16,045 nucleotides of DNA. It comes from Desulfobacterales bacterium (GTDB lineage Bacteria; Desulfobacterota; Desulfobacteria; Desulfobacterales; JAFDCJ01). Every line of letters begins with the position of its first letter. Position 1 is the first letter of the stretch. Both the position numbers and the translations under genes were made by a program. Where the stretch lies: assembly GCA_029939875.1 (NCBI GenBank), contig JAOZSC010000012.1:1-16045 (forward strand). Direction: 5' to 3'. A model generated the notes under the pieces. It saw only the letters and a program-made list of their open reading frames with translations, was not told the origin of the DNA and ran no database searches. Of the stretch, positions 2,451 to 15,874 are shown piece after piece.

Positions 2451-3380
2451 TCAGGTAGTAATTTCAGTCCCTGCGTTGCCTTCTATGGCGTGCTCGATAT
2501 CTTCCAGGTGGCAGATGATCCCGCGCTGCCCGGTGGCTTTATAAAAGTCCATGACGGCTTCCACTTTGGGTCCCATGGAGCCGGCTGGAAACTGACCCTC
2601 CCGGGCATACTGCTGCACCTGCGACAGCGAAACCTTGCCCAGTATTTTTTGATTCTGGCTTCCCCAGTTGACGCCGGCCCCCGGGACATCCGAGGCGATC
2701 ACAAAAGCAGCGGCCTCTATTTCCCGGGCCAGCACGGAGCTGGCGAGATCTTTGTCGATCACGGCCTCCACGCCCCGGAATTTGCGATTCTGGCGAATTA
2801 CCGGTATGCCTCCTCCTCCGCCGCAGATAACGATAAAGTCCATGTCAATCAGCTTTTTGATCTCCCGCCGCTCGACGATGGTCTGCGGTTTCGGCGAAGC
2901 CACCACGCGGCGCAGTCCCCGGTCAGTCCGAACCATGTTGTAGGGCAGTCCCCGCGCCGGCTGTTCGGTGTACGTCGGCCCGATGGGCTTGGTGGGGTTT
3001 TTAAACCCCTCATCGTTTTCATCCACCACCACATATGTAATCAGGGTAACAAACTGCTGCTCCTCGGTGATACCGATTTCCATCAACGCCGTGTCCAGGG
3101 AAGATTCCAGCATGTAGCCGATCTGGCCCTGGGTCATGGCACCGATGATTTCAAGCGGCATTTTCGGAACCTCGCTGCAGCTTTCCTGCTGCAACAGCAG
3201 GTTGCCCACCTGGGGACCGTTGCCGTGGGTGATGACGATTTTATACTTCCTGGAAAGCCGGGCAATCTGGTTCATGGGCAGTTCAAGATTCTTGAACTGC
3301 TGCTCAGCAGTGCCCGCCTGTCCTTTTTTAATCAGGGCGTTGCCGCCCAGGGCGATTAAAATAATAGGGCCATTCGCCAT
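2451..3380 (-). CDS. arcC: Carbamate kinase
   Basis: Carbamate kinase (309 residues, the usual length) reversibly transfers the phosphate of carbamoyl phosphate to ADP, giving ATP and carbamate, which decays to ammonia and CO2. It acts in the cytoplasm as the last, energy-yielding step of citrulline or arginine fermentation. The amino-acid kinase fold is visible throughout: LGGNALIKKG (11-20), HGNGPQVGNLLLQQ (52-65), the family-specific NPTKPIGP (128-135) with a conserved lysine, CGGGGGIPV (186-193), EAVIDKDLAS (205-214) and PAGSMGPKVEA (265-275). The start ATG has GGAG 9 nt ahead. It lies 142 bp downstream of ornithine carbamoyltransferase on the same strand, so the two enzymes probably work in sequence. 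The long gaps on both sides leave room for internal promoters. Identification is secure; the net direction in the cell is inferred from the pairing. Confidence 0.96.
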   Translation of the reverse strand: MANGPIILIALGGNALIKKGQAGTAEQQFKNLELPMNQIARLSRKYKIVITHGNGPQVGNLLLQQESCSEVPKMPLEIIGAMTQGQIGYMLESSLDTALMEIGITEEQQFVTLITYVVVDENDEGFKNPTKPIGPTYTEQPARGLPYNMVRTDRGLRRVVASPKPQTIVERREIKKLIDMDFIVICGGGGGIPVIRQNRKFRGVEAVIDKDLASSVLAREIEAAAFVIASDVPGAGVNWGSQNQKILGKVSLSQVQQYAREGQFPAGSMGPKVEAVMDFYKATGQRGIICHLEDIEHAIEGNAGTEITT

Positions 3381-3522
3381 CTGGGAACACTCCGGCAGAA
3401 AGATTAATGCATAGATATTTTCTAGCCATATAAACTTATTCGTAATGCCATTCTCGACACAACTCTTTTTTATACAACGGACAATTGATCACGAACCACG
3501 GACCCGCCGTATGCGACTGAGC
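3381..3522. other. Intergenic gap between OTC and carbamate kinase, with a repeat-like string
   Basis: This 142 bp gap has no gene. Positions 3475-3503 carry a string combining ACAATTGATCACGAA and ACCACGGAC. It resembles the ACAATTGATCACGAACCACGAAC-type low-complexity sequence seen between genes in related bacteria. No clear terminator hairpin with a T tract follows the OTC stop, so read-through into the kinase gene is plausible. Confidence 0.35.
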
Positions 3523-4524
3523 TTATTGGCCCAATGTCGCCACCATTACCGCCTTGATGGTATGGATGCGATTTTCAGCCTCGTCGAAGACAACCGATGC
3601 CGGGGATTCAAACACTTCCTCGGTCACCTCCATGGCTTCCAGCGCAAACTTCTGATGGATTTGCTCTCCAATCCGGGTCTCACAGTTGTGAAATGCCGGC
3701 AGGCAGTGTAGAAATTTGACCTCTGAATTGCCGGTTTTTTCCATGACTGCGGCATTGATCTGGTAAGGCTGCAGCAAGCCGATGCGCTCTTTCCAGACGT
3801 CCTCCGGCTCGCCCATGGAAACCCACACATCCGTGCATAGGAAATCACAACCCTTGACACCGGCGTCGAGATCATCGGTAATGGTGATCCGGGCTCCGGT
3901 CTGCTCGGCGATCTTCCCGACCTTACCGACCAGCGGTGGGTCGGGTTGCACACTTTTGGGGGCCACGGAACGAAAGTCCATACCCATCTTGGCCGCTCCC
4001 ACCAGCAAGGAATTGCCCATGTTGTTTCTGGCATCCCCCAGGTAGGCAAATTTCACCTGGCGCAACGGTTTGTCGCTGTGCTCCATCATGGTCAACAGAT
4101 CCGCCAGGACCTGGGTGGGATGAAATTCATCGGTCAGCCCGTTCCACACGGGGATCCCGGCATAGCGGGCCAGTTCCTCCACGATATTCTGTCCGAATCC
4201 GCGGTATTCTATGCCGTCGTACATGCGCCCCAACACCCGGGCCGTGTCCTTCATCGTCTCTTTGGCCCCCATCTGGGAGCCGCTGGGTCCCAAATAAGTC
4301 ACGTGGGCCCCCTGGTCATAAGCCGCCACCTCAAACGCACAGCGGGTGCGGGTGGAAGCTTTTTCAAATATCAGGGCGATGTTCTTGCCGGTCAGTAGCG
4401 GCTGTTCAGCCCTGGCATACTTGGATTTTTTCAGATCCCGGGCAAGGGTCAGCAAAAACGCGACTTCTTCAGGAGTAAAATCCAGCAGTTTTAGAAAATG
4501 CCTGTTTTTTAAGTTGGATGCCAT
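3523..4524 (-). CDS. Ornithine carbamoyltransferase
   Basis: Ornithine carbamoyltransferase (333 residues) interconverts citrulline plus phosphate with ornithine plus carbamoyl phosphate. All signature motifs are present: the carbamoyl-phosphate loop STRTR (57-61), the long conserved block [18 protein letters not shown] (69-86), HPTQ (135-138), the ornithine-binding VSMGE (235-239) and HCLPAFH (273-279). It is close in sequence to E. coli ArgI/ArgF, with alanine for aspartate just before STRTR. The start ATG has a strong GGAGG 6 nt ahead. It is the first gene of the minus-strand cluster and is followed by carbamate kinase, which points to a catabolic (arcB-like) role. Sequence alone does not separate catabolic from biosynthetic enzymes, so no symbol is given. 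Confidence 0.96.
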
Positions 4525-8792: not shown

Positions 8793-10298
8793 TTATTTTT
8801 TGGGCGCAGCTAATCGCCTATGCAGCTGCAGCCAGTCGCTGAGTTCCTGAATATCTTCGGACTGCTGGAAACGTCCGCCGGCAAATACGCCGTAGTCACC
8901 GCCACCGGCCATGGCCGAGGCAAAACGAATGGTGTTGGCCCGAAACAACCAGCTACCAACCCATTTTTTTTCCACCGCCTCATCAAACGGATTCCCGCCG
9001 GCACCGGGCCCTCGGGCCAACCCAAGGCGCCAAATTTCTCCCATGATGCCGGTCGCCAAGCGGGTCCTATCGTTGGTGCGCTCAATGGTGTGCTGCAAGC
9101 GCTGCCAGTAACCGTTTACCCAGGAAGCTGCGTGACAGTTCAGACAGACGGCCTGCATCTTTTTGCGGCGAACGGCCTGCTCCTGCTGCCCGATCAGGTA
9201 ATCCATGGCAAACCCGCCATCAAAATCCGTGGGCAGAGGCAGACCGTCCTTGTTGCGGATGATGGTGGTGTCGGGCTTTTGCGGGTGAGGATGAGCGTAG
9301 ATCAGCCCGTAGATACGCCATGGCAACCGGTCATTCATGCGGTGCGTGCGTTCGGAAACCACCTCGCCGTCTGTGTTGACCAGCAGGCTGATATGGCAGA
9401 CCGCGCAGGTGGGCGCGCTAAAATCACGGCCAATTATCCAGGGGACGGTCTCAAAATTCCAGGATTTGTGCATGGCTGAAAAAATGTTGCCATGCTTGCT
9501 CGCGGCGTACACCTTGAAGGCTGGTACATCGGGGCCCACGTGGCATTTTTTGCAGGTGTATGGCTTGCGGGCCATCTCGATGGAAAAGGCATGCCGGCTA
9601 TGGCAGGCCGCGCAGGAACCCAGGCTGCCGTCCGGATTCACGCGTCCCACGCCCTGGTTGGGCCAGCCCTTGATAACAGGAAATTCGAGTTCACCGGCGG
9701 CTTCCGTATCCCGGGTTTCAGTGCCGGTAACTGTCAGTCGGGTGCCGTGGCAGTAATAGCAAGCCTCAGCCCTGGTGTCGTCATCGGATTGTCCAAAGCT
9801 TATTTTGCCGTTTTTTCTGGTTTCTTTTCCAATGATGCTGCGCTGAAGTTCATGGTACAGAGCATTGTCGGCCAGATTGCTGTAAGCATGTGCCATGAGA
9901 TTTTCGCCATACTGCTCGGCTTCCTGCTCGTGACAGGTGCGACAGTCCGCCGGGGTGACCACCACATGGATATCATAGCCGTTGTGCTCGAAGGTGTCGG
10001 CATGGGCTTTGGGGCTGATCATGTGGCATTCAGCACAACCCACGGCCACCTTTTTCAGGGCAGCCGGTACGGTTTTGCTGGAAACCCTGCGCGCCAGCTC
10101 CTCAACATCCAGCGCCTGGCCGGGAGTTCTCCGCGCATGGCGGCTGTCCCGCCAGTCTTTGACGATGCCGGGATGTACCGCCGCGTGGCAGTCCAGGCAT
10201 TCGGTGGTGGCATCACTGAGCGGCACCGGAGCCCCAATTCCGACAAACGGATAAAAAGTACAGGCAAAAAGCAAACATGCAGATATGATGTTTTTCAT
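8793..10298 (-). CDS. Octaheme cytochrome c, hydroxylamine oxidoreductase family
   Basis: A secreted cytochrome of 501 residues with a signal peptide (about 1-23, basic MKN then hydrophobic, cleavage near GIGA) and exactly eight CxxCH heme sites: CLDCH (34), CAECH (88), CRTCH (119), CYYCH (180), CAACH (229), CKKCH (249), CAVCH (298) and CLNCH (385). The heme order, spacing and the HPGIVKDWRDSRHA segment after heme 1 fit hydroxylamine oxidoreductase-like octaheme proteins. Some of these oxidise hydroxylamine or hydrazine and others reduce nitrite or hydroxylamine in anaerobes. The start was moved to ATG 10296-10298, which has AGGAG 7 nt ahead, rather than an in-frame GTG 48 bp upstream that would spoil the signal peptide. 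There is no C-terminal membrane anchor, so it should be periplasmic. No quinol-oxidising partner lies beside it. Oxidative or reductive direction cannot be read from the sequence by eye. Confidence 0.9.
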   Translation of the reverse strand: MKNIISACLLFACTFYPFVGIGAPVPLSDATTECLDCHAAVHPGIVKDWRDSRHARRTPGQALDVEELARRVSSKTVPAALKKVAVGCAECHMISPKAHADTFEHNGYDIHVVVTPADCRTCHEQEAEQYGENLMAHAYSNLADNALYHELQRSIIGKETRKNGKISFGQSDDDTRAEACYYCHGTRLTVTGTETRDTEAAGELEFPVIKGWPNQGVGRVNPDGSLGSCAACHSRHAFSIEMARKPYTCKKCHVGPDVPAFKVYAASKHGNIFSAMHKSWNFETVPWIIGRDFSAPTCAVCHISLLVNTDGEVVSERTHRMNDRLPWRIYGLIYAHPHPQKPDTTIIRNKDGLPLPTDFDGGFAMDYLIGQQEQAVRRKKMQAVCLNCHAASWVNGYWQRLQHTIERTNDRTRLATGIMGEIWRLGLARGPGAGGNPFDEAVEKKWVGSWLFRANTIRFASAMAGGGDYGVFAGGRFQQSEDIQELSDWLQLHRRLAAPKK

Positions 10299-10336
10299 TT
10301 GATTCTCCTGCCGCTGACAATTTTCTTTTTTGCTGT

Positions 10337-10365
10337 TTATTAACACACGAGACGGCCATTGTCCA
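10337..10365 (-). promoter_or_regulatory. Candidate promoter for the octaheme cytochrome gene
   Basis: On the minus strand TGGACA (10360-10365, one mismatch to TTGACA) lies 17 bp from TAATAA (10337-10342, a poor -10). It falls in the 70-bp gap between the transporter stop and the cytochrome start, the right place for a cytochrome-HD hydrolase promoter. Confidence 0.3.
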
Positions 10366-12428: not shown

Positions 12429-14930
12429 ATGACCCAGGATACTGGCGTTGACGTTTACCGAAAACTGGAAGATGCGTTTACCCGCACGGCCATACACCGA
12501 CCGATGCACCTGCAGCGCTATGAAGCCGGCACCGATCTGGTCTATCATATAAAAGGAATCCGCAACCCCGGCCGGGTGAAAGTGCGTCTGGTAATTGAAA
12601 AGTTTGTCGGAGGAGGATTTGCCGGGCAGGTTTACCGGGTAAAACTGCTGGATATGGAATCTGACGAGGGCAGCATTGACGATCTTATAATCGGGCAAAC
12701 CTATGCTGTTAAAATCTTAATCCCTCCGAGCGGCTTTTCGCGGCTGTTTCGCAATGCGCTTTACTGGATTGGTTTCCAGGGCCCCTTTCAACTCCAGGTA
12801 AATCCGGCGGCCGCCCGGGCCGGCGCCCTGTGGCAAAAATTCATCCGGCAGGCTGCCGCAACCGTTTTTGGCGAAGAAACGGCCGTGGTAGACATTTACG
12901 CTACCTTTGTGGATCAACACATGGGAAGCTGCGGTGAGCTGAGCGAATGGGTGGACGGACGCACTTGGCGCCTGGAAGTCGATGATCACCTGGATCGACT
13001 CAAACGCTGGTTTAAGGGCCGAAAAGTGGATGTGCAGCAATTGGGATCCCCGGAATACCGGGCCAAGTATGAGTTCATGCGCCGGTTCGTTGCACTGCTG
13101 CATGACATCGGCGCCCATGAATTTGCCCGGCAATATGAATGGTCCACCTGGAAAAGCCAGCCCAACTGCCTGAAACGCAGCAACACCGAAGCGTTGCCAT
13201 CCGAAGGACTGACCGCCGTTGATTTCAGGGCCGGGCTGGCGTTACTGCCCTTTTTGCCCATGAGCCCGGGAGACTTCAAACTGATCATCACCGGGATTAT
13301 GCGTGCCAGTCTGGTACAGTTTGACCGCGGCAGCCTGACACGGCTCAAACAATTCACCCAGGCCCATCCGGAGGATTTTGCCGGCACGCAGACCATGCTG
13401 GAAGAGTTGGAATCCTGCGAGCGGGTTTACCGCAACTCCGTGCCCGATGTCACTCATAACCATGTTCGCCTGCTGTACAGCCGCAGGCTTTGGTCCACGA
13501 TGCTGAACAGTGCGGCTGCCGGCTGGAAGGTGCGCAATTTAATCAGTAACTCCTGCCGGCAGGTGCTGAAAAACAGCACCGCTTTGACCCTGCTGTTCGC
13601 CATGCTCGGTGTGATACCGATCGCCGGCCGTTTTATCCGGCGCATCTGGGGCCAGCCCTTCTGGCGTACCCATTATCGCACCATGCTGACCAGCAGCGAT
13701 TATCTTCGCCGGGCCGTACGGGCCAAATTTATTGAAAAAATTATCGACTGGCACCGCGCCGGCAGGATTGACGATCAAAAAGCCCTGCGCCTGCCGGAGC
13801 AGATATGGCCCTGCTGTTACCACTTGATGCTGGCCTGGCTGCCGGCGGGACTGCACCACTTTTTAACGGACGCTTCCTACGCCAGGCAGCGGCTGGAATA
13901 TATAACGTTGCGGCCGGTGCGGCTGTATTTCAACAACGCCTTGCGGGAACAGTGGCTGCGCGACATGGTCACCGAAGGAAAGGGCAACCACCTGCTTACC
14001 GATGAAGACGCGCAAACCATCCTGTCGCAAATCAAAGAGCCCTATATCCAGAAGTATCTCAAAAGCCTGGCCGTGCACGTGTGCACCTTGCCGGTCACCC
14101 AGGTGGTCTCAGTGCTGACGGCCATTTTATACGTGCTCATGCATCCCGAAATGCCACGCACCCAGGCCTACAGCATCGGCCTTGGAATCATCGCGCTGTT
14201 TCAGGTGGTGCCGATCTCCCCGGGTTCCCTGACCCGGGGCCTTTACGTTCTATACCTGGTTATCCGGGAGAAAAACTTCAAAGATTACAACATCGCCGTC
14301 TTTTTGGGGTTTTTCAAGTATATCGGTTACCTGGCCTTTCCGATCCAGATGACCTATCGCTATCCGGCCCTGGCCCGGTTCATGGCCGGCTACTGGGCCA
14401 CCGAGGCCGTGCACGTGGTACCGGTGTTCGGTGAACGCGGCGCACTGCTGGAACACAAAATATTCAACCTGTTTTACAACTGGCCGCTGACCATCCGCCG
14501 CAGGATGCAAACGCGCAGCCGGATTCGGGCGACCCAACCGCATCGCTACTGGCACATGGCGCTGTGTGCCCTGGCCGGGACGGGAATTTTTATGGTAATC
14601 GACCGCCTTTACGCCCAGTCGTCGGGCCAGCTTCCGGACCTGGAAAAAATCTGGTTTGCGGCGCTGGCAGTGCCGGCCCTGTGCGGTGTTGCGGCAACTC
14701 TGGGAGCCGGTGGAGCACCGATCTGGAAACGGATTGCGGGAGCCGCCCTATGCGGTGCGGCTATAGGGGGCTTCAGTATCGCCGGAGCACCCCTGCTGGC
14801 TCATGTTCATCCTGCAGGATGGTCCGCATTGGCGACAACCGGCGCCTGGCGGGTCTTTATCTTTGCACTGCTGGCCGTAAGCGCTGTGCTGGTCACCGAA
14901 GTCAAGCTGCCCGATGCTGAAACAGGATAA
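12429..14930 (+). CDS. Large protein: kinase-like N-terminus fused to multi-pass membrane domain
   Basis: I do not recognise a named family. The start ATG 12429 was chosen for AAGGA 8 nt ahead; an in-frame ATG at 12327 has no Shine-Dalgarno. The product has 833 residues. The N-terminal third resembles a protein-kinase fold: a glycine-rich loop KFVGGGFAGQVYRV (58-71), a VAIK-like YAVKIL with Lys95, a hinge-like GELSEWVDGRTW (169-180), SQPNCLKR with Asn246 where the catalytic loop would be, and a DFG-like AVDFRAGLAL (263-272). The usual catalytic Asp five residues before the Asn is a Trp by eye, so it may be a pseudokinase. From about 384 on there are roughly nine or ten membrane segments (384-402, 456-478, 545-571, 580-597, 620-643, 706-727, 741-761, 767-789, 804-823). 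The central part 594-693, with PISPGSLTRG and FGERGALLEH, looks strongly conserved. It converges on the DHH gene. Function unknown; possibly envelope sensing or lipid-linked chemistry. Confidence 0.85.
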   Translation: MTQDTGVDVYRKLEDAFTRTAIHRPMHLQRYEAGTDLVYHIKGIRNPGRVKVRLVIEKFVGGGFAGQVYRVKLLDMESDEGSIDDLIIGQTYAVKILIPPSGFSRLFRNALYWIGFQGPFQLQVNPAAARAGALWQKFIRQAAATVFGEETAVVDIYATFVDQHMGSCGELSEWVDGRTWRLEVDDHLDRLKRWFKGRKVDVQQLGSPEYRAKYEFMRRFVALLHDIGAHEFARQYEWSTWKSQPNCLKRSNTEALPSEGLTAVDFRAGLALLPFLPMSPGDFKLIITGIMRASLVQFDRGSLTRLKQFTQAHPEDFAGTQTMLEELESCERVYRNSVPDVTHNHVRLLYSRRLWSTMLNSAAAGWKVRNLISNSCRQVLKNSTALTLLFAMLGVIPIAGRFIRRIWGQPFWRTHYRTMLTSSDYLRRAVRAKFIEKIIDWHRAGRIDDQKALRLPEQIWPCCYHLMLAWLPAGLHHFLTDASYARQRLEYITLRPVRLYFNNALREQWLRDMVTEGKGNHLLTDEDAQTILSQIKEPYIQKYLKSLAVHVCTLPVTQVVSVLTAILYVLMHPEMPRTQAYSIGLGIIALFQVVPISPGSLTRGLYVLYLVIREKNFKDYNIAVFLGFFKYIGYLAFPIQMTYRYPALARFMAGYWATEAVHVVPVFGERGALLEHKIFNLFYNWPLTIRRRMQTRSRIRATQPHRYWHMALCALAGTGIFMVIDRLYAQSSGQLPDLEKIWFAALAVPALCGVAATLGAGGAPIWKRIAGAALCGAAIGGFSIAGAPLLAHVHPAGWSALATTGAWRVFIFALLAVSAVLVTEVKLPDAETG

Positions 14931-14974: not shown

Positions 14975-15874
14975 TCATCGGATTTCATTGTTTTTGTTTT
15001 TCTGCAGGACATCAAGAATCTGGGGAAGGTATTCACCGGCCCTGGCGGCGGGAAAACGGGTAGAGGCCGCACCGCGATGACCGCCGCCTTCAAATTCGGC
15101 CAGCAGCAAACCAGCGTTGACCCTGCATCCGGGATTAAAAATACTGTGCCCCACATGGACCGCAATCAGCTCCCGCTTTTTATCCTCAAAACGAATCTTC
15201 AGGTGCACGACCGCCTCGGGAAACAACGAATAGATGAGAAACCGGTTGCCAGCAGGCACTTTCTCCAGATTGCGAAAATCCGTGATGGCGACATGATGCT
15301 GCACATGGGTGTAAGTCTTGAGCGCCTCGGTGTACACTTCGTTTTGCCGTACCACCTCCCGGCAGTGCTGTTTCACATCCGGATCATCCAGGACCTGCCG
15401 GATATCAAATTTTTGCAGAAGATCCACCAGTCGGTTCCAGTAAGACGGGTTTGGATCTTCGCCGTCTGAAACGGTCATCGACAGCAGTACATAATCATAT
15501 TTTTCGGGATGTTCCACTTCATCCAGGCTAAGGTCGGCCGAATCAATTTTGTCTGCGGCGGCAGCCAACTCCCGGTAGTCCCGCCCAAGTCTGCCGCGGT
15601 AATACTCGAAAACAATTCCGGCCGCCGACGGGGCGATTTTAAAAGCGCCGTTGAAGGGGCGATAAATGCGGTTGGTGTAATGATGGTCAAACCAGAGCGT
15701 ACAGCGGTCGTGGTAGGGCAGATTCGCAATGATGTCTCCTTTGCGAATTTCAACCAGCCCTCTTTGCAGGGGGTTGGGTTCTACCCATTTCACCGTTTTT
15801 TTTATCTTCAGGGCATCGGATAACAGGACGGCACAAACCACACCGTCAAAATCCGGCCGGGTCACAATCCGCAT
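14975..15874 (-). CDS. DHH/DHHA1 phosphoesterase (exopolyphosphatase-like)
   Basis: A 299-residue cytoplasmic member of the DHH phosphoesterase superfamily, which hydrolyses phosphodiester or phosphoanhydride bonds with Mn2+ (exopolyphosphatase, NrnA/RecJ-like or cyclic-dinucleotide enzymes). Motifs in order: TRPDFDG with D8 and D10 (motif I; the usual His is replaced), KGD with D47 (II), FDHH (62-65, III), ADKIDSAD (107-114, IV), and the DHHA1 substrate motif GGGHRGAAS (263-271). The start ATG has GGAG 6 nt upstream. I recall similar proteins annotated as exopolyphosphatase in sulfate-reducing bacteria, but polyphosphate, nanoRNA or a cyclic dinucleotide are all possible. It is a single gene, converging on the kinase-like membrane protein gene and with non-coding DNA upstream. 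Confidence 0.87.
   Translation of the reverse strand: MRIVTRPDFDGVVCAVLLSDALKIKKTVKWVEPNPLQRGLVEIRKGDIIANLPYHDRCTLWFDHHYTNRIYRPFNGAFKIAPSAAGIVFEYYRGRLGRDYRELAAAADKIDSADLSLDEVEHPEKYDYVLLSMTVSDGEDPNPSYWNRLVDLLQKFDIRQVLDDPDVKQHCREVVRQNEVYTEALKTYTHVQHHVAITDFRNLEKVPAGNRFLIYSLFPEAVVHLKIRFEDKKRELIAVHVGHSIFNPGCRVNAGLLLAEFEGGGHRGAASTRFPAARAGEYLPQILDVLQKNKNNEIR

What the first reader, a model, noticed from the sequence alone, without database searches (positions are those of the whole stretch)
12429..14930. Uncharacterised fusion of a divergent kinase-like fold to a ten-helix membrane domain
The protein shows, in the right order, a glycine-rich loop (58-71), a VAIK-like lysine (K95), a hinge-like segment, an Asn in a catalytic-loop position (N246) and a DFG-like D265, then about nine or ten membrane segments. 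By eye the catalytic-loop Asp is missing, so it could be a pseudokinase that binds nucleotide and controls the membrane part, or a new kinase variant. Residues 594-693 look highly constrained, which suggests the membrane part has a specific activity. I know no described system with this architecture.
Basis: partly seen in the sequence, partly recalled or inferred. Interest (0 to 1): 0.75.

Follow-up and report, generated by a model that had tools for sequence, protein, structure and literature searches.

The report
Kinase-like membrane protein tied to PgpA
A large, unnamed family of bacterial membrane proteins carries what looks like an ATP-binding kinase-type head that lacks the usual catalytic acid, and in some bacteria it sits beside, or is fused to, an enzyme that makes the membrane lipid phosphatidylglycerol, which points to a new lipid-handling machine.

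Summary
The 833-aa protein has no Pfam or NCBIfam match but many relatives: 3103 of 8000 scored candidates. In 412 aligned rows G61, G63, G66, Q67, K95, N246 and D265 are present in 412; none has an Asp at 234-247. A kinase-like fold is supported, not proven. ABC1/UbiB and protein kinases rank first and second of 17 profile references (P 0.0035, 0.010), in the right register but over the N-lobe motif only; APH and SelO do not score. Eight of ten kinase-type contact blocks are enriched in residue couplings, but I set the blocks after seeing the couplings. Structure prediction never ran. New: a link to PgpA (phosphatidylglycerophosphatase A), directly upstream in 35 of 118 loci (two of them the same place), fused in frame in 2 genomes where it is the only PgpA found, and fused in 34 of 120 listed relatives of one fused protein. 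All linked loci seen are Planctomycetota; the window's genome has PgpA on another contig. Best reading: a kinase-fold, nucleotide-binding membrane protein that handles anionic phospholipid near PgpA. The reaction is unknown.

The parts
12429..14930 (+). whole gene (833 aa and stop): kinase-like N-domain, membrane core, variable membrane tail
12429..13463 (+). N-terminal kinase-like domain (residues 1-345)
   Evidence: motif conservation, profile comparison, residue couplings
12609..12629 (+). glycine-rich loop GGGFAGQ (residues 61-67)
   Evidence: G61, G63, G66, Q67 412/412; G62 and A65 411/412; F64 399/412
12711..12713 (+). VAIK-type lysine K95
   Evidence: 412/412
13128..13175 (+). catalytic-loop segment RQYEWSTWKSQPNCLK (residues 234-249), no Asp; K242, S243, P245, N246 invariant
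13221..13223 (+). D265 of the DFG-like motif (DFR; DFG in part of the family, including the PgpA-fused members shown)
   Evidence: D265 412/412; residue 267 is R 374, G 34, K 3, A 1; fused proteins
13272..13274 (+). D282, invariant; its segment is coupled to the catalytic loop; possible alpha-F Asp or stand-in base (inference)
   Evidence: 412/412; catalytic loop x 278-286 block p 0.006
13329..13430 (+). helical hairpin (residues about 301-334) after the kinase-like lobe
   Evidence: coupling bands 301-313 x 322-334
13581..14507 (+). membrane core (residues about 385-693)
   Evidence: hydropathy, conservation
14208..14507 (+). most conserved membrane segment (594-693), with PISPGSxxRG (595-604) and PVFGExGALxEH (665-676)
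14529..14927 (+). variable four-segment membrane tail (residues 701-833); replaced by PgpA or absent in other members

Best explanation
This is a membrane-anchored, protein-kinase-like protein of a new family. The N-domain binds Mg-ATP (or another nucleotide) with a glycine-rich loop, K95, N246 and D265. Because the HRD-type Asp is absent from all 412 rows looked at, it does not work as a textbook kinase: either another residue (D282, K242 and E237 are candidates) supports a non-standard transfer, or nucleotide binding and hydrolysis drives a shape change. The N-domain is joined to a membrane core whose invariant or nearly invariant polar residues (R603, E669, E675, N684, H676) probably hold an anionic lipid head group. 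Its field of work is the phosphatidylglycerol branch, next to PgpA: handing over, moving or modifying PGP/PG or a related phospholipid. Shown: conservation pattern, missing Asp, operon-type linkage and gene fusion with PgpA in Planctomycetota. Inferred: kinase fold, nucleotide binding, lipid substrate.
For: Pocket residues 412/412 with no Asp at 234-247 in 412 rows. ABC1/UbiB and protein kinase profiles rank 1 and 2 of 17 references (P 0.0035, 0.010; next LPG_synthase_TM 0.13; the 12 other controls 0.17-0.70), aligning the G-loop to the VAIK lysine in the right register; earlier, shallower profiles gave the same order (ABC1 0.031; ABC1 0.015 and PK 0.023). Eight of ten kinase-type contact blocks enriched at p 0.006-0.038, uncorrected. 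PgpA in 37 of 118 loci, in these 37 always on the same strand: 35 upstream, 2 fused (L166 is the same place as L019). 34 of 120 listed relatives of the fused protein carry PF04608. In the two fused genomes the fused copy is the only PF04608 match; in four other genomes PgpA is convergent within about 0.4-1.1 kb, so the link survives different arrangements. UppS and CdsA each occur in 12 loci of the same cluster.
Against: No structure model could be obtained. The profile match covers 25-35 columns of the N-lobe only, and two of four kinase-fold references (APH 0.32, SelO 0.55) did not score. No Glu between K95 and residue 169 reaches 90% conservation in A3, so the alpha-C Glu is not seen (Q136, 389/412, lies in that helix). 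The beta1-beta3 and catalytic loop-beta8 blocks were not enriched (p 0.17, 0.77); the beta4-beta5 band is not among the 14 strongest bands, and couplings suggest an extra strand (29-42) that classical kinases lack. The PgpA link is absent in the window's own genome (PgpA on another contig) and was not seen in loci of other phyla, though many have short flanks; 2 of 16 family-bearing genomes, including that of L071, have no PF04608 match.
Confidence: 0.5

Rival explanations
1. A true pseudokinase: the N-domain binds nucleotide without catalysis and only gates or scaffolds the membrane part, which is the enzyme or transporter.
For: No Asp near the catalytic position in 412 rows while the binding residues stay; the membrane segment 594-693 is conserved like an enzyme site.
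Against: The would-be catalytic loop is not relaxed: K242, S243, P245, N246 are 412/412 and Q244 411/412, more than binding alone would seem to need (inference). SELO lost the same Asp and was still argued to be active (passages of PMC3281104; its AMPylation activity is recalled).
Confidence: 0.25
2. Not a kinase fold: another nucleotide- or substrate-binding domain that shares a G-loop-like hairpin by convergence.
For: No kinase family among the 25 of 34 Pfam families shown for 62 members at E up to 10; two of four kinase-fold references did not score; an extra strand is suggested; the beta1-beta3 block is not enriched.
Against: Order and spacing of the invariant motifs; the two best of 17 profile references are kinases in the right register; beta1-beta2, beta3-beta5, beta4-beta5, alpha-C over beta4/5 and alpha-C to alpha-E blocks are enriched. 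By the same method SelO, a kinase fold (prediction; solved, recalled), scores no better against protein kinases (P 0.068).
Confidence: 0.2
3. A lipid flippase or synthase of the LPG_synthase_TM (MprF-type) kind with a kinase-like regulator (can be combined with the other readings).
For: The conserved PISPGS segment resembles the P-[ILV]-P-G-G region of that family by eye (recalled); LPG_synthase_TM was the best of 14 references (P 0.042 and 0.044) and the best of seven (P 0.016).
Against: With the domain-only alignment of the same family it is no better than controls (P 0.21 and 0.096 with other references ahead; 0.14 against controls of 0.13-0.57); no LPG_synthase_TM match on the window protein or among the families shown for 62 members.
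Confidence: 0.15
4. The PgpA link is a housekeeping-cluster accident of Planctomycetota and says nothing about function.
For: The cluster also holds PurA, PhoH, YbeY, HIT and HD genes without a common theme; the linked loci seen are of one phylum.
Against: In-frame fusions in 34 protein clusters at 54-100% identity to the query, with the fused copy as sole PF04608 match in two genomes, and three different arrangements (upstream, convergent, fused).
Confidence: 0.2

Closest known systems
UbiB/ABC1/COQ8 (ADCK) atypical kinases, PF03109
   Same: Best profile match (P 0.0035): the GQVYR...AVK...P stretch aligns with ABC1's GQVH/Y..A...VAVKVQRP; membrane-linked, lipid field of work; a long stretch (79 residues) between the beta3 Lys and the hinge W174.
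   Different: Glycine-rich, not alanine-rich, loop; no KxGQ seen in residues 1-60 of the window protein; catalytic Asp absent; carries a large membrane core; no ABC1 match on the window protein.
SelO pseudokinase family, PF02696
   Same: Missing HRD Asp with Lys, Asn and DFG Asp kept (SELO pattern from passages of PMC3281104).
   Different: No detectable profile similarity (P 0.55); SELO keeps the alpha-C Glu, no such conserved Glu seen here; SelO has no membrane core (recalled).
LPG_synthase_TM / MprF flippase domain, PF03706
   Same: Membrane protein near phosphatidylglycerol metabolism (recalled); a PxSPG / PxPGG-like segment.
   Different: No consistent profile match; no Pfam match on the window protein.
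PgpA, PF04608
   Same: Fused to the C-terminus of part of the family.
   Different: The window protein has no PgpA domain; the non-fused tails are unrelated to PgpA by profile (P 0.48).

Membership tests
Protein-kinase-like (PKL) superfamily | glycine-rich loop, VAIK Lys, catalytic-loop Asn, DFG Asp in order | tested here: met
   G61, G63, G66, K95, N246, D265 412/412
Protein-kinase-like (PKL) superfamily | two-lobe kinase fold | tested here: inconclusive
   8 of 10 coupling blocks enriched, blocks set after seeing couplings; profile rank 1-2 of 17 over the N-lobe only; no structure model (47 requests between met a full queue or no answer)
Protein-kinase-like (PKL) superfamily | catalytic HRD/YRD Asp (active protein kinases) | tested here: not met
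   0 of 412 rows have Asp in 234-247
Protein-kinase-like (PKL) superfamily | alpha-C Glu pairing with the beta3 Lys | tested here: not met
   no Glu at 90% or more between K95 and 169 in 146 rows
UbiB/ABC1 (PF03109) | Ala-rich loop replacing the Gly-rich loop | tested here: not met
   G61, G63, G66 412/412; UbiB feature from PMC4718504 passages
UbiB/ABC1 (PF03109) | KxGQ motif in the N-terminal extension | tested here: not met
   not present in residues 1-60 of the window protein (read); other members not searched for it
UbiB/ABC1 (PF03109) | ExD motif in the N-lobe insertion | not tested
   feature from PMC4718504 passages
UbiB/ABC1 (PF03109) | match to the Pfam model | tested here: not met
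   none on the window protein at E up to 1 or 10 (member 1); not among the 25 of 34 families shown for 62 members
SelO (PF02696) | profile similarity | tested here: not met
   P 0.55
LPG_synthase_TM (PF03706) | profile similarity of the membrane core | tested here: inconclusive
   P 0.016 with one alignment, 0.14 with the other, controls 0.13-0.57; 0.042 best of 14; 0.21 and 0.096, not best
PgpA (PF04608) | PgpA domain in the window protein | tested here: not met
   no Pfam match; profile of 278 non-fused tails against PgpA P 0.48

The most novel reading that the evidence does not exclude
A new class of kinase-fold enzyme without the catalytic Asp that uses ATP, through a K242/S243/Q244/N246-D265 (and perhaps D282) site, to modify or move PGP/PG in the membrane. 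It would be coupled directly to PgpA, so that in some Planctomycetota one polypeptide carries both the ATP-dependent step and the phosphatase step of phosphatidylglycerol synthesis.
Probability: 0.2. Interest if true: 0.85.

Novelty: new variant of a known kind. Interest (0 to 1): 0.62.

Why it matters
If right, this is a large unnamed kinase-like family, so far met almost only in metagenome-assembled genomes (titles), that is tied by gene fusion to a core phospholipid enzyme. It gives a directly testable question: what does an ATP-binding head do at the PGP-to-PG step? It would also add another natural experiment, besides SelO, on chemistry in a kinase pocket without the HRD Asp. I know of no other such family (recall). 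That none is in print was looked for only in the searches and 118 of an open-access library, of which I saw the capped listings.

Tried and rejected
Structure prediction: requested 47 times; the queue was full (100 jobs waiting) 40 times, up, and the machine did not answer 7 times, from then on. No model was made and no fold search was run.

LPG_synthase_TM (MprF) membership of the membrane core: first raised by eye, then tested by profile comparison. Best of 14 references (P 0.042-0.044), not best, best of seven with one alignment (0.016) but not with the domain-only one (0.14). Not adopted. A first comparison of the C-terminal tail with PgpA gave P 0.00036, but that profile held rows that really carry PgpA; without the 34 fused rows P is 0.48, so the tail is not a decayed PgpA.

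Replacement of PgsA (PGP synthase) by this protein: not supported. CDP-alcohol phosphotransferases (PF01066) are found in 14 of 14 genomes examined. Which of them is PgsA was not resolved, and the window's own genome (80% complete) showed only one, at E 4.7e-11, so this is not a proof for the window's species.

Stand-alone versions of the kinase-like or membrane domain: not searched for separately. In 192 genomes of the window's class the profile found 9 full-length matches (the window's included) and one chance-level match (E 0.07).

Pfam scan of 62 members: 34 families matched at E up to 10, 25 shown; NDUF_B6 in 6 members (best E 2.8e-6; P0196, residues 510-591, 28.0 bits against a cut-off of 27.9) and DUF7700 in 8 (best E 0.0013). 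I take these for chance or composition matches in the membrane core; not followed up.

Caveats on counts: the 118 loci are not all independent. L166 is the place of L019, and L076-L080 and some others appear to lie in the same genomes as, or to be near-copies of, earlier loci; many have only 1.5 kb of flank and the PgpA queries were all from Planctomycetota, so a missing PgpA is not always absence. The contact blocks were set after I had seen the coupling lists (the catalytic loop-D282 and hinge-beta8 blocks because of them), so their p-values lean in favour; null blocks were not matched for conservation and nothing was corrected for ten tests. The hhalign reference sets kept 11 ABC1, 16 APH, 13 protein kinase and 12 LPG domain rows out of 30 loci fetched for each (those that did not read cleanly from base 1501 of the locus, or were short, were dropped), and 10 of 10 SelO loci. 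The coupling alignment used 411 of 412 rows (one with coverage of 70% or less over residues 1-700 dropped).
Full report
What is there. The ORF at 12429-14930 (+) encodes 833 aa. It has no match in Pfam or NCBIfam at E up to 1 and no convincing relative in the PDB by sequence (single protein, best E 0.19; profiles of 63 and 62 members, best E 0.63 and 1.2). It is not rare: 3103 of 8000 scored candidates match at E <= 1e-3, and a scan of one genome per species gave 74 loci in many phyla at 42-84% identity. Those records are nearly all titled MAG. In the window's own lineage it is patchy: 6 of 40 genomes, all six in the window's genus and the window's own included, and 9 full-length matches in 192 genomes of the class, the window's included. 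In the class of L019 (Planctomycetota) it is in 36 of 150 genomes. A quick tree groups rows mostly by phylum with several exceptions; bins are of uncertain origin, so I do not claim transfer.

Motifs. In 412 aligned rows (63 rows of A1 plus the proteins listed by three searches, aligned; about 183 effective sequences at 80%), G61, G63, G66, Q67, K95, R108, Q117, W174, R178, W180, E209, K213, R234, Q235, Y236, W238, K242, S243, P245, N246, D265, G269, D282, Q297 and D299 are 412/412. The position of the HRD Asp (241 if N246 is the PKA Asn171 equivalent; PKA numbering as in PMC4718504, passages read) is Cys, Trp, Met, Leu, Gly or Ala in 409 rows, and no row has an Asp from 234 to 247. Position 267 is Arg in 374 and Gly in 34 rows, so part of the family has a plain DFG; the PgpA-fused proteins shown are of that kind.

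Is it a kinase fold? Three lines, none decisive. First, order and invariance of the motifs. Second, profile comparison: with the 412-row N-domain profile, ABC1/UbiB (P 0.0035) and protein kinases (P 0.010) are first and second of 17 references, LPG_synthase_TM is 0.13, the 12 other controls are 0.17-0.70, but APH (0.32) and SelO (0.55) do not score. Shallower profiles gave the same order. The aligned stretch is only the G-loop to VAIK-Lys part, in the right register. True kinase families find each other at 94.6-98.5% probability, while SelO, whose kinase-like fold was predicted in PMC3281104 (passages) and later solved (recalled), reaches only P 0.068 against protein kinases, 0.27 against ABC1 and 0.026 against APH in the same test. 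So a weak score does not exclude the fold. Third, mean-field residue couplings with an effective 178 sequences: bands for beta1-beta2 (48-54 x 74-80) and an alpha-C/alpha-E contact (141-147 x 222-228) are among the three strongest antiparallel bands found without prior choice; pairs 161-168, 156-172 and 154-173 would fit a beta4-beta5 hairpin (154-170 is out of that register), though this band is not among the 14 strongest. Of ten kinase-type blocks, eight are enriched at p 0.006-0.038, beta1-beta3 is not (0.17), and catalytic loop-beta8 is not (0.77; nearly invariant columns carry no signal); the blocks were set after seeing the couplings and the p-values are uncorrected. Couplings also suggest a strand at 29-42 beside beta1 and beta3, which is not in a standard kinase, and no alpha-C Glu is conserved. 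I put the kinase-like fold at about 0.7.

Membrane part. Hydropathy averaged over A1 gives about four core and four tail segments. The core has its own invariant or nearly invariant polar residues: R603 412/412, S600 410, E669 410, E675 410, N684 410, H676 400 of 412, within or near PISPGSxxRG and PVFGExGALxEH. Region 594-693 has the highest mean conservation of the membrane part (0.78). The tail is poorly conserved (0.35) and optional.

Link to PgpA. Clustering of neighbour genes found PgpA next to the gene in 20 loci. A direct tblastn over 118 loci found PgpA in 37, in these always on the same strand: 35 upstream with gaps of 0-184 bases between the matched stretches, 23 of them under 50, and 2 downstream (L166 repeats L019). 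Those two are in-frame fusions: L184 1435-4071 (878 aa) and L182 1507-4095 (862 aa). P0201 has PgpA at 707-879 with E 2.5e-30. A search with the fused protein gave 34 fused proteins as its 34 best of 120 listed, at 54-100% identity. Genome-wide, 16 of 16 genomes examined have exactly one PF04608 match. In the two fused genomes (G229, G262) it is the fused one; in G253, G311 and G340 it is directly upstream; in G238, G261, G288 and G365 it is convergent within about 0.4-1.1 kb; in G275 about 5 kb away; in five others and in the window's genome (G000, contig 10) it is on another contig (positions). In another set, 14 of 16 genomes have PF04608 (13 with one match, one with two) and two have none. 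The linked loci are all from Planctomycetota records or from the class of G205. So the link is real there and not obligatory. In the same cluster lie UppS and CdsA (12 loci each), with PurA, PhoH, YbeY and others.

How it most likely works. Inference: the N-domain binds a nucleotide with the kept pocket. The membrane core binds an anionic phospholipid or its head group with the Arg/Glu/His/Asn set. Nucleotide binding or use is coupled to handling of that lipid, and PgpA acts on the same or the next molecule. UbiB proteins are the nearest functional picture: the review read in passages (PMC4718504) describes ADCK3 as a kinase fold in isoprenoid lipid metabolism with nucleotide binding and latent activity; UbiB proteins regulate CoQ distribution in yeast (title and start of abstract of PMC8346625 in the listing). 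It is not a UbiB member: it lacks the Ala-rich loop and the catalytic Asp, and the window protein shows no KxGQ in residues 1-60. A plain PGP synthase role is not supported, because CDP-alcohol phosphotransferases are present in 14 of 14 genomes, although PgsA itself was not singled out.

Literature. Seven searches of the open-access library showed, in their capped listings, no paper whose title or abstract start names this architecture or a PgpA fusion of this kind; passages of PMC4718504, PMC7877690 and PMC3281104 were read. Catalogues of unknown families from uncultivated taxa (PMC10849945, listing only) may hold it under a number; not checked.

Noticed in passing
window 2451-4524 (-): Carbamate kinase (TIGR00746, over cut-off) and ornithine carbamoyltransferase (TIGR00658, over cut-off) side by side, followed by a 451-aa protein at 856-2211 without NCBIfam match at E <= 1e-10 that has a P-loop-like stretch by eye.
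   Followed up: partly
window 8793-10346 (-): Cytochrome-like protein of 517 aa with several CxxCH motifs by eye and only a far-below-cut-off match to hydrazine dehydrogenase (60.5 of 900 bits).
   Followed up: no
window 14975-15874 (-): Phosphoesterase-like gene (DHH-type by eye) convergent to the target, with relatives in 11 loci, next to the target in those shown (cluster 10); no NCBIfam match at E <= 1e-10, MYG1 match below cut-off.
   Followed up: partly
L019 10710-11516 and 11539-12021 (relatives in 17 and 15 loci): Two conserved proteins without Pfam match at E <= 0.01 lie just downstream of the family gene in the Planctomycetota cluster.
   Followed up: no
L186-L194, in genomes G238, G261, G288 and others: A form of about 880-930 aa whose profile match is split near position 400, as if it had an insertion; PgpA is convergent nearby in four of these genomes.
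   Followed up: no
L020, L029, L066: In three loci a 392-425 aa protein (cluster 39) sits 18-31 bases upstream of the family gene; not identified.
   Followed up: no
P0196 residues 510-591: NDUF_B6 Pfam match just over its cut-off in the membrane core (28.0 bits, cut-off 27.9; 6 of 62 members match at E up to 10); probably chance.
   Followed up: no
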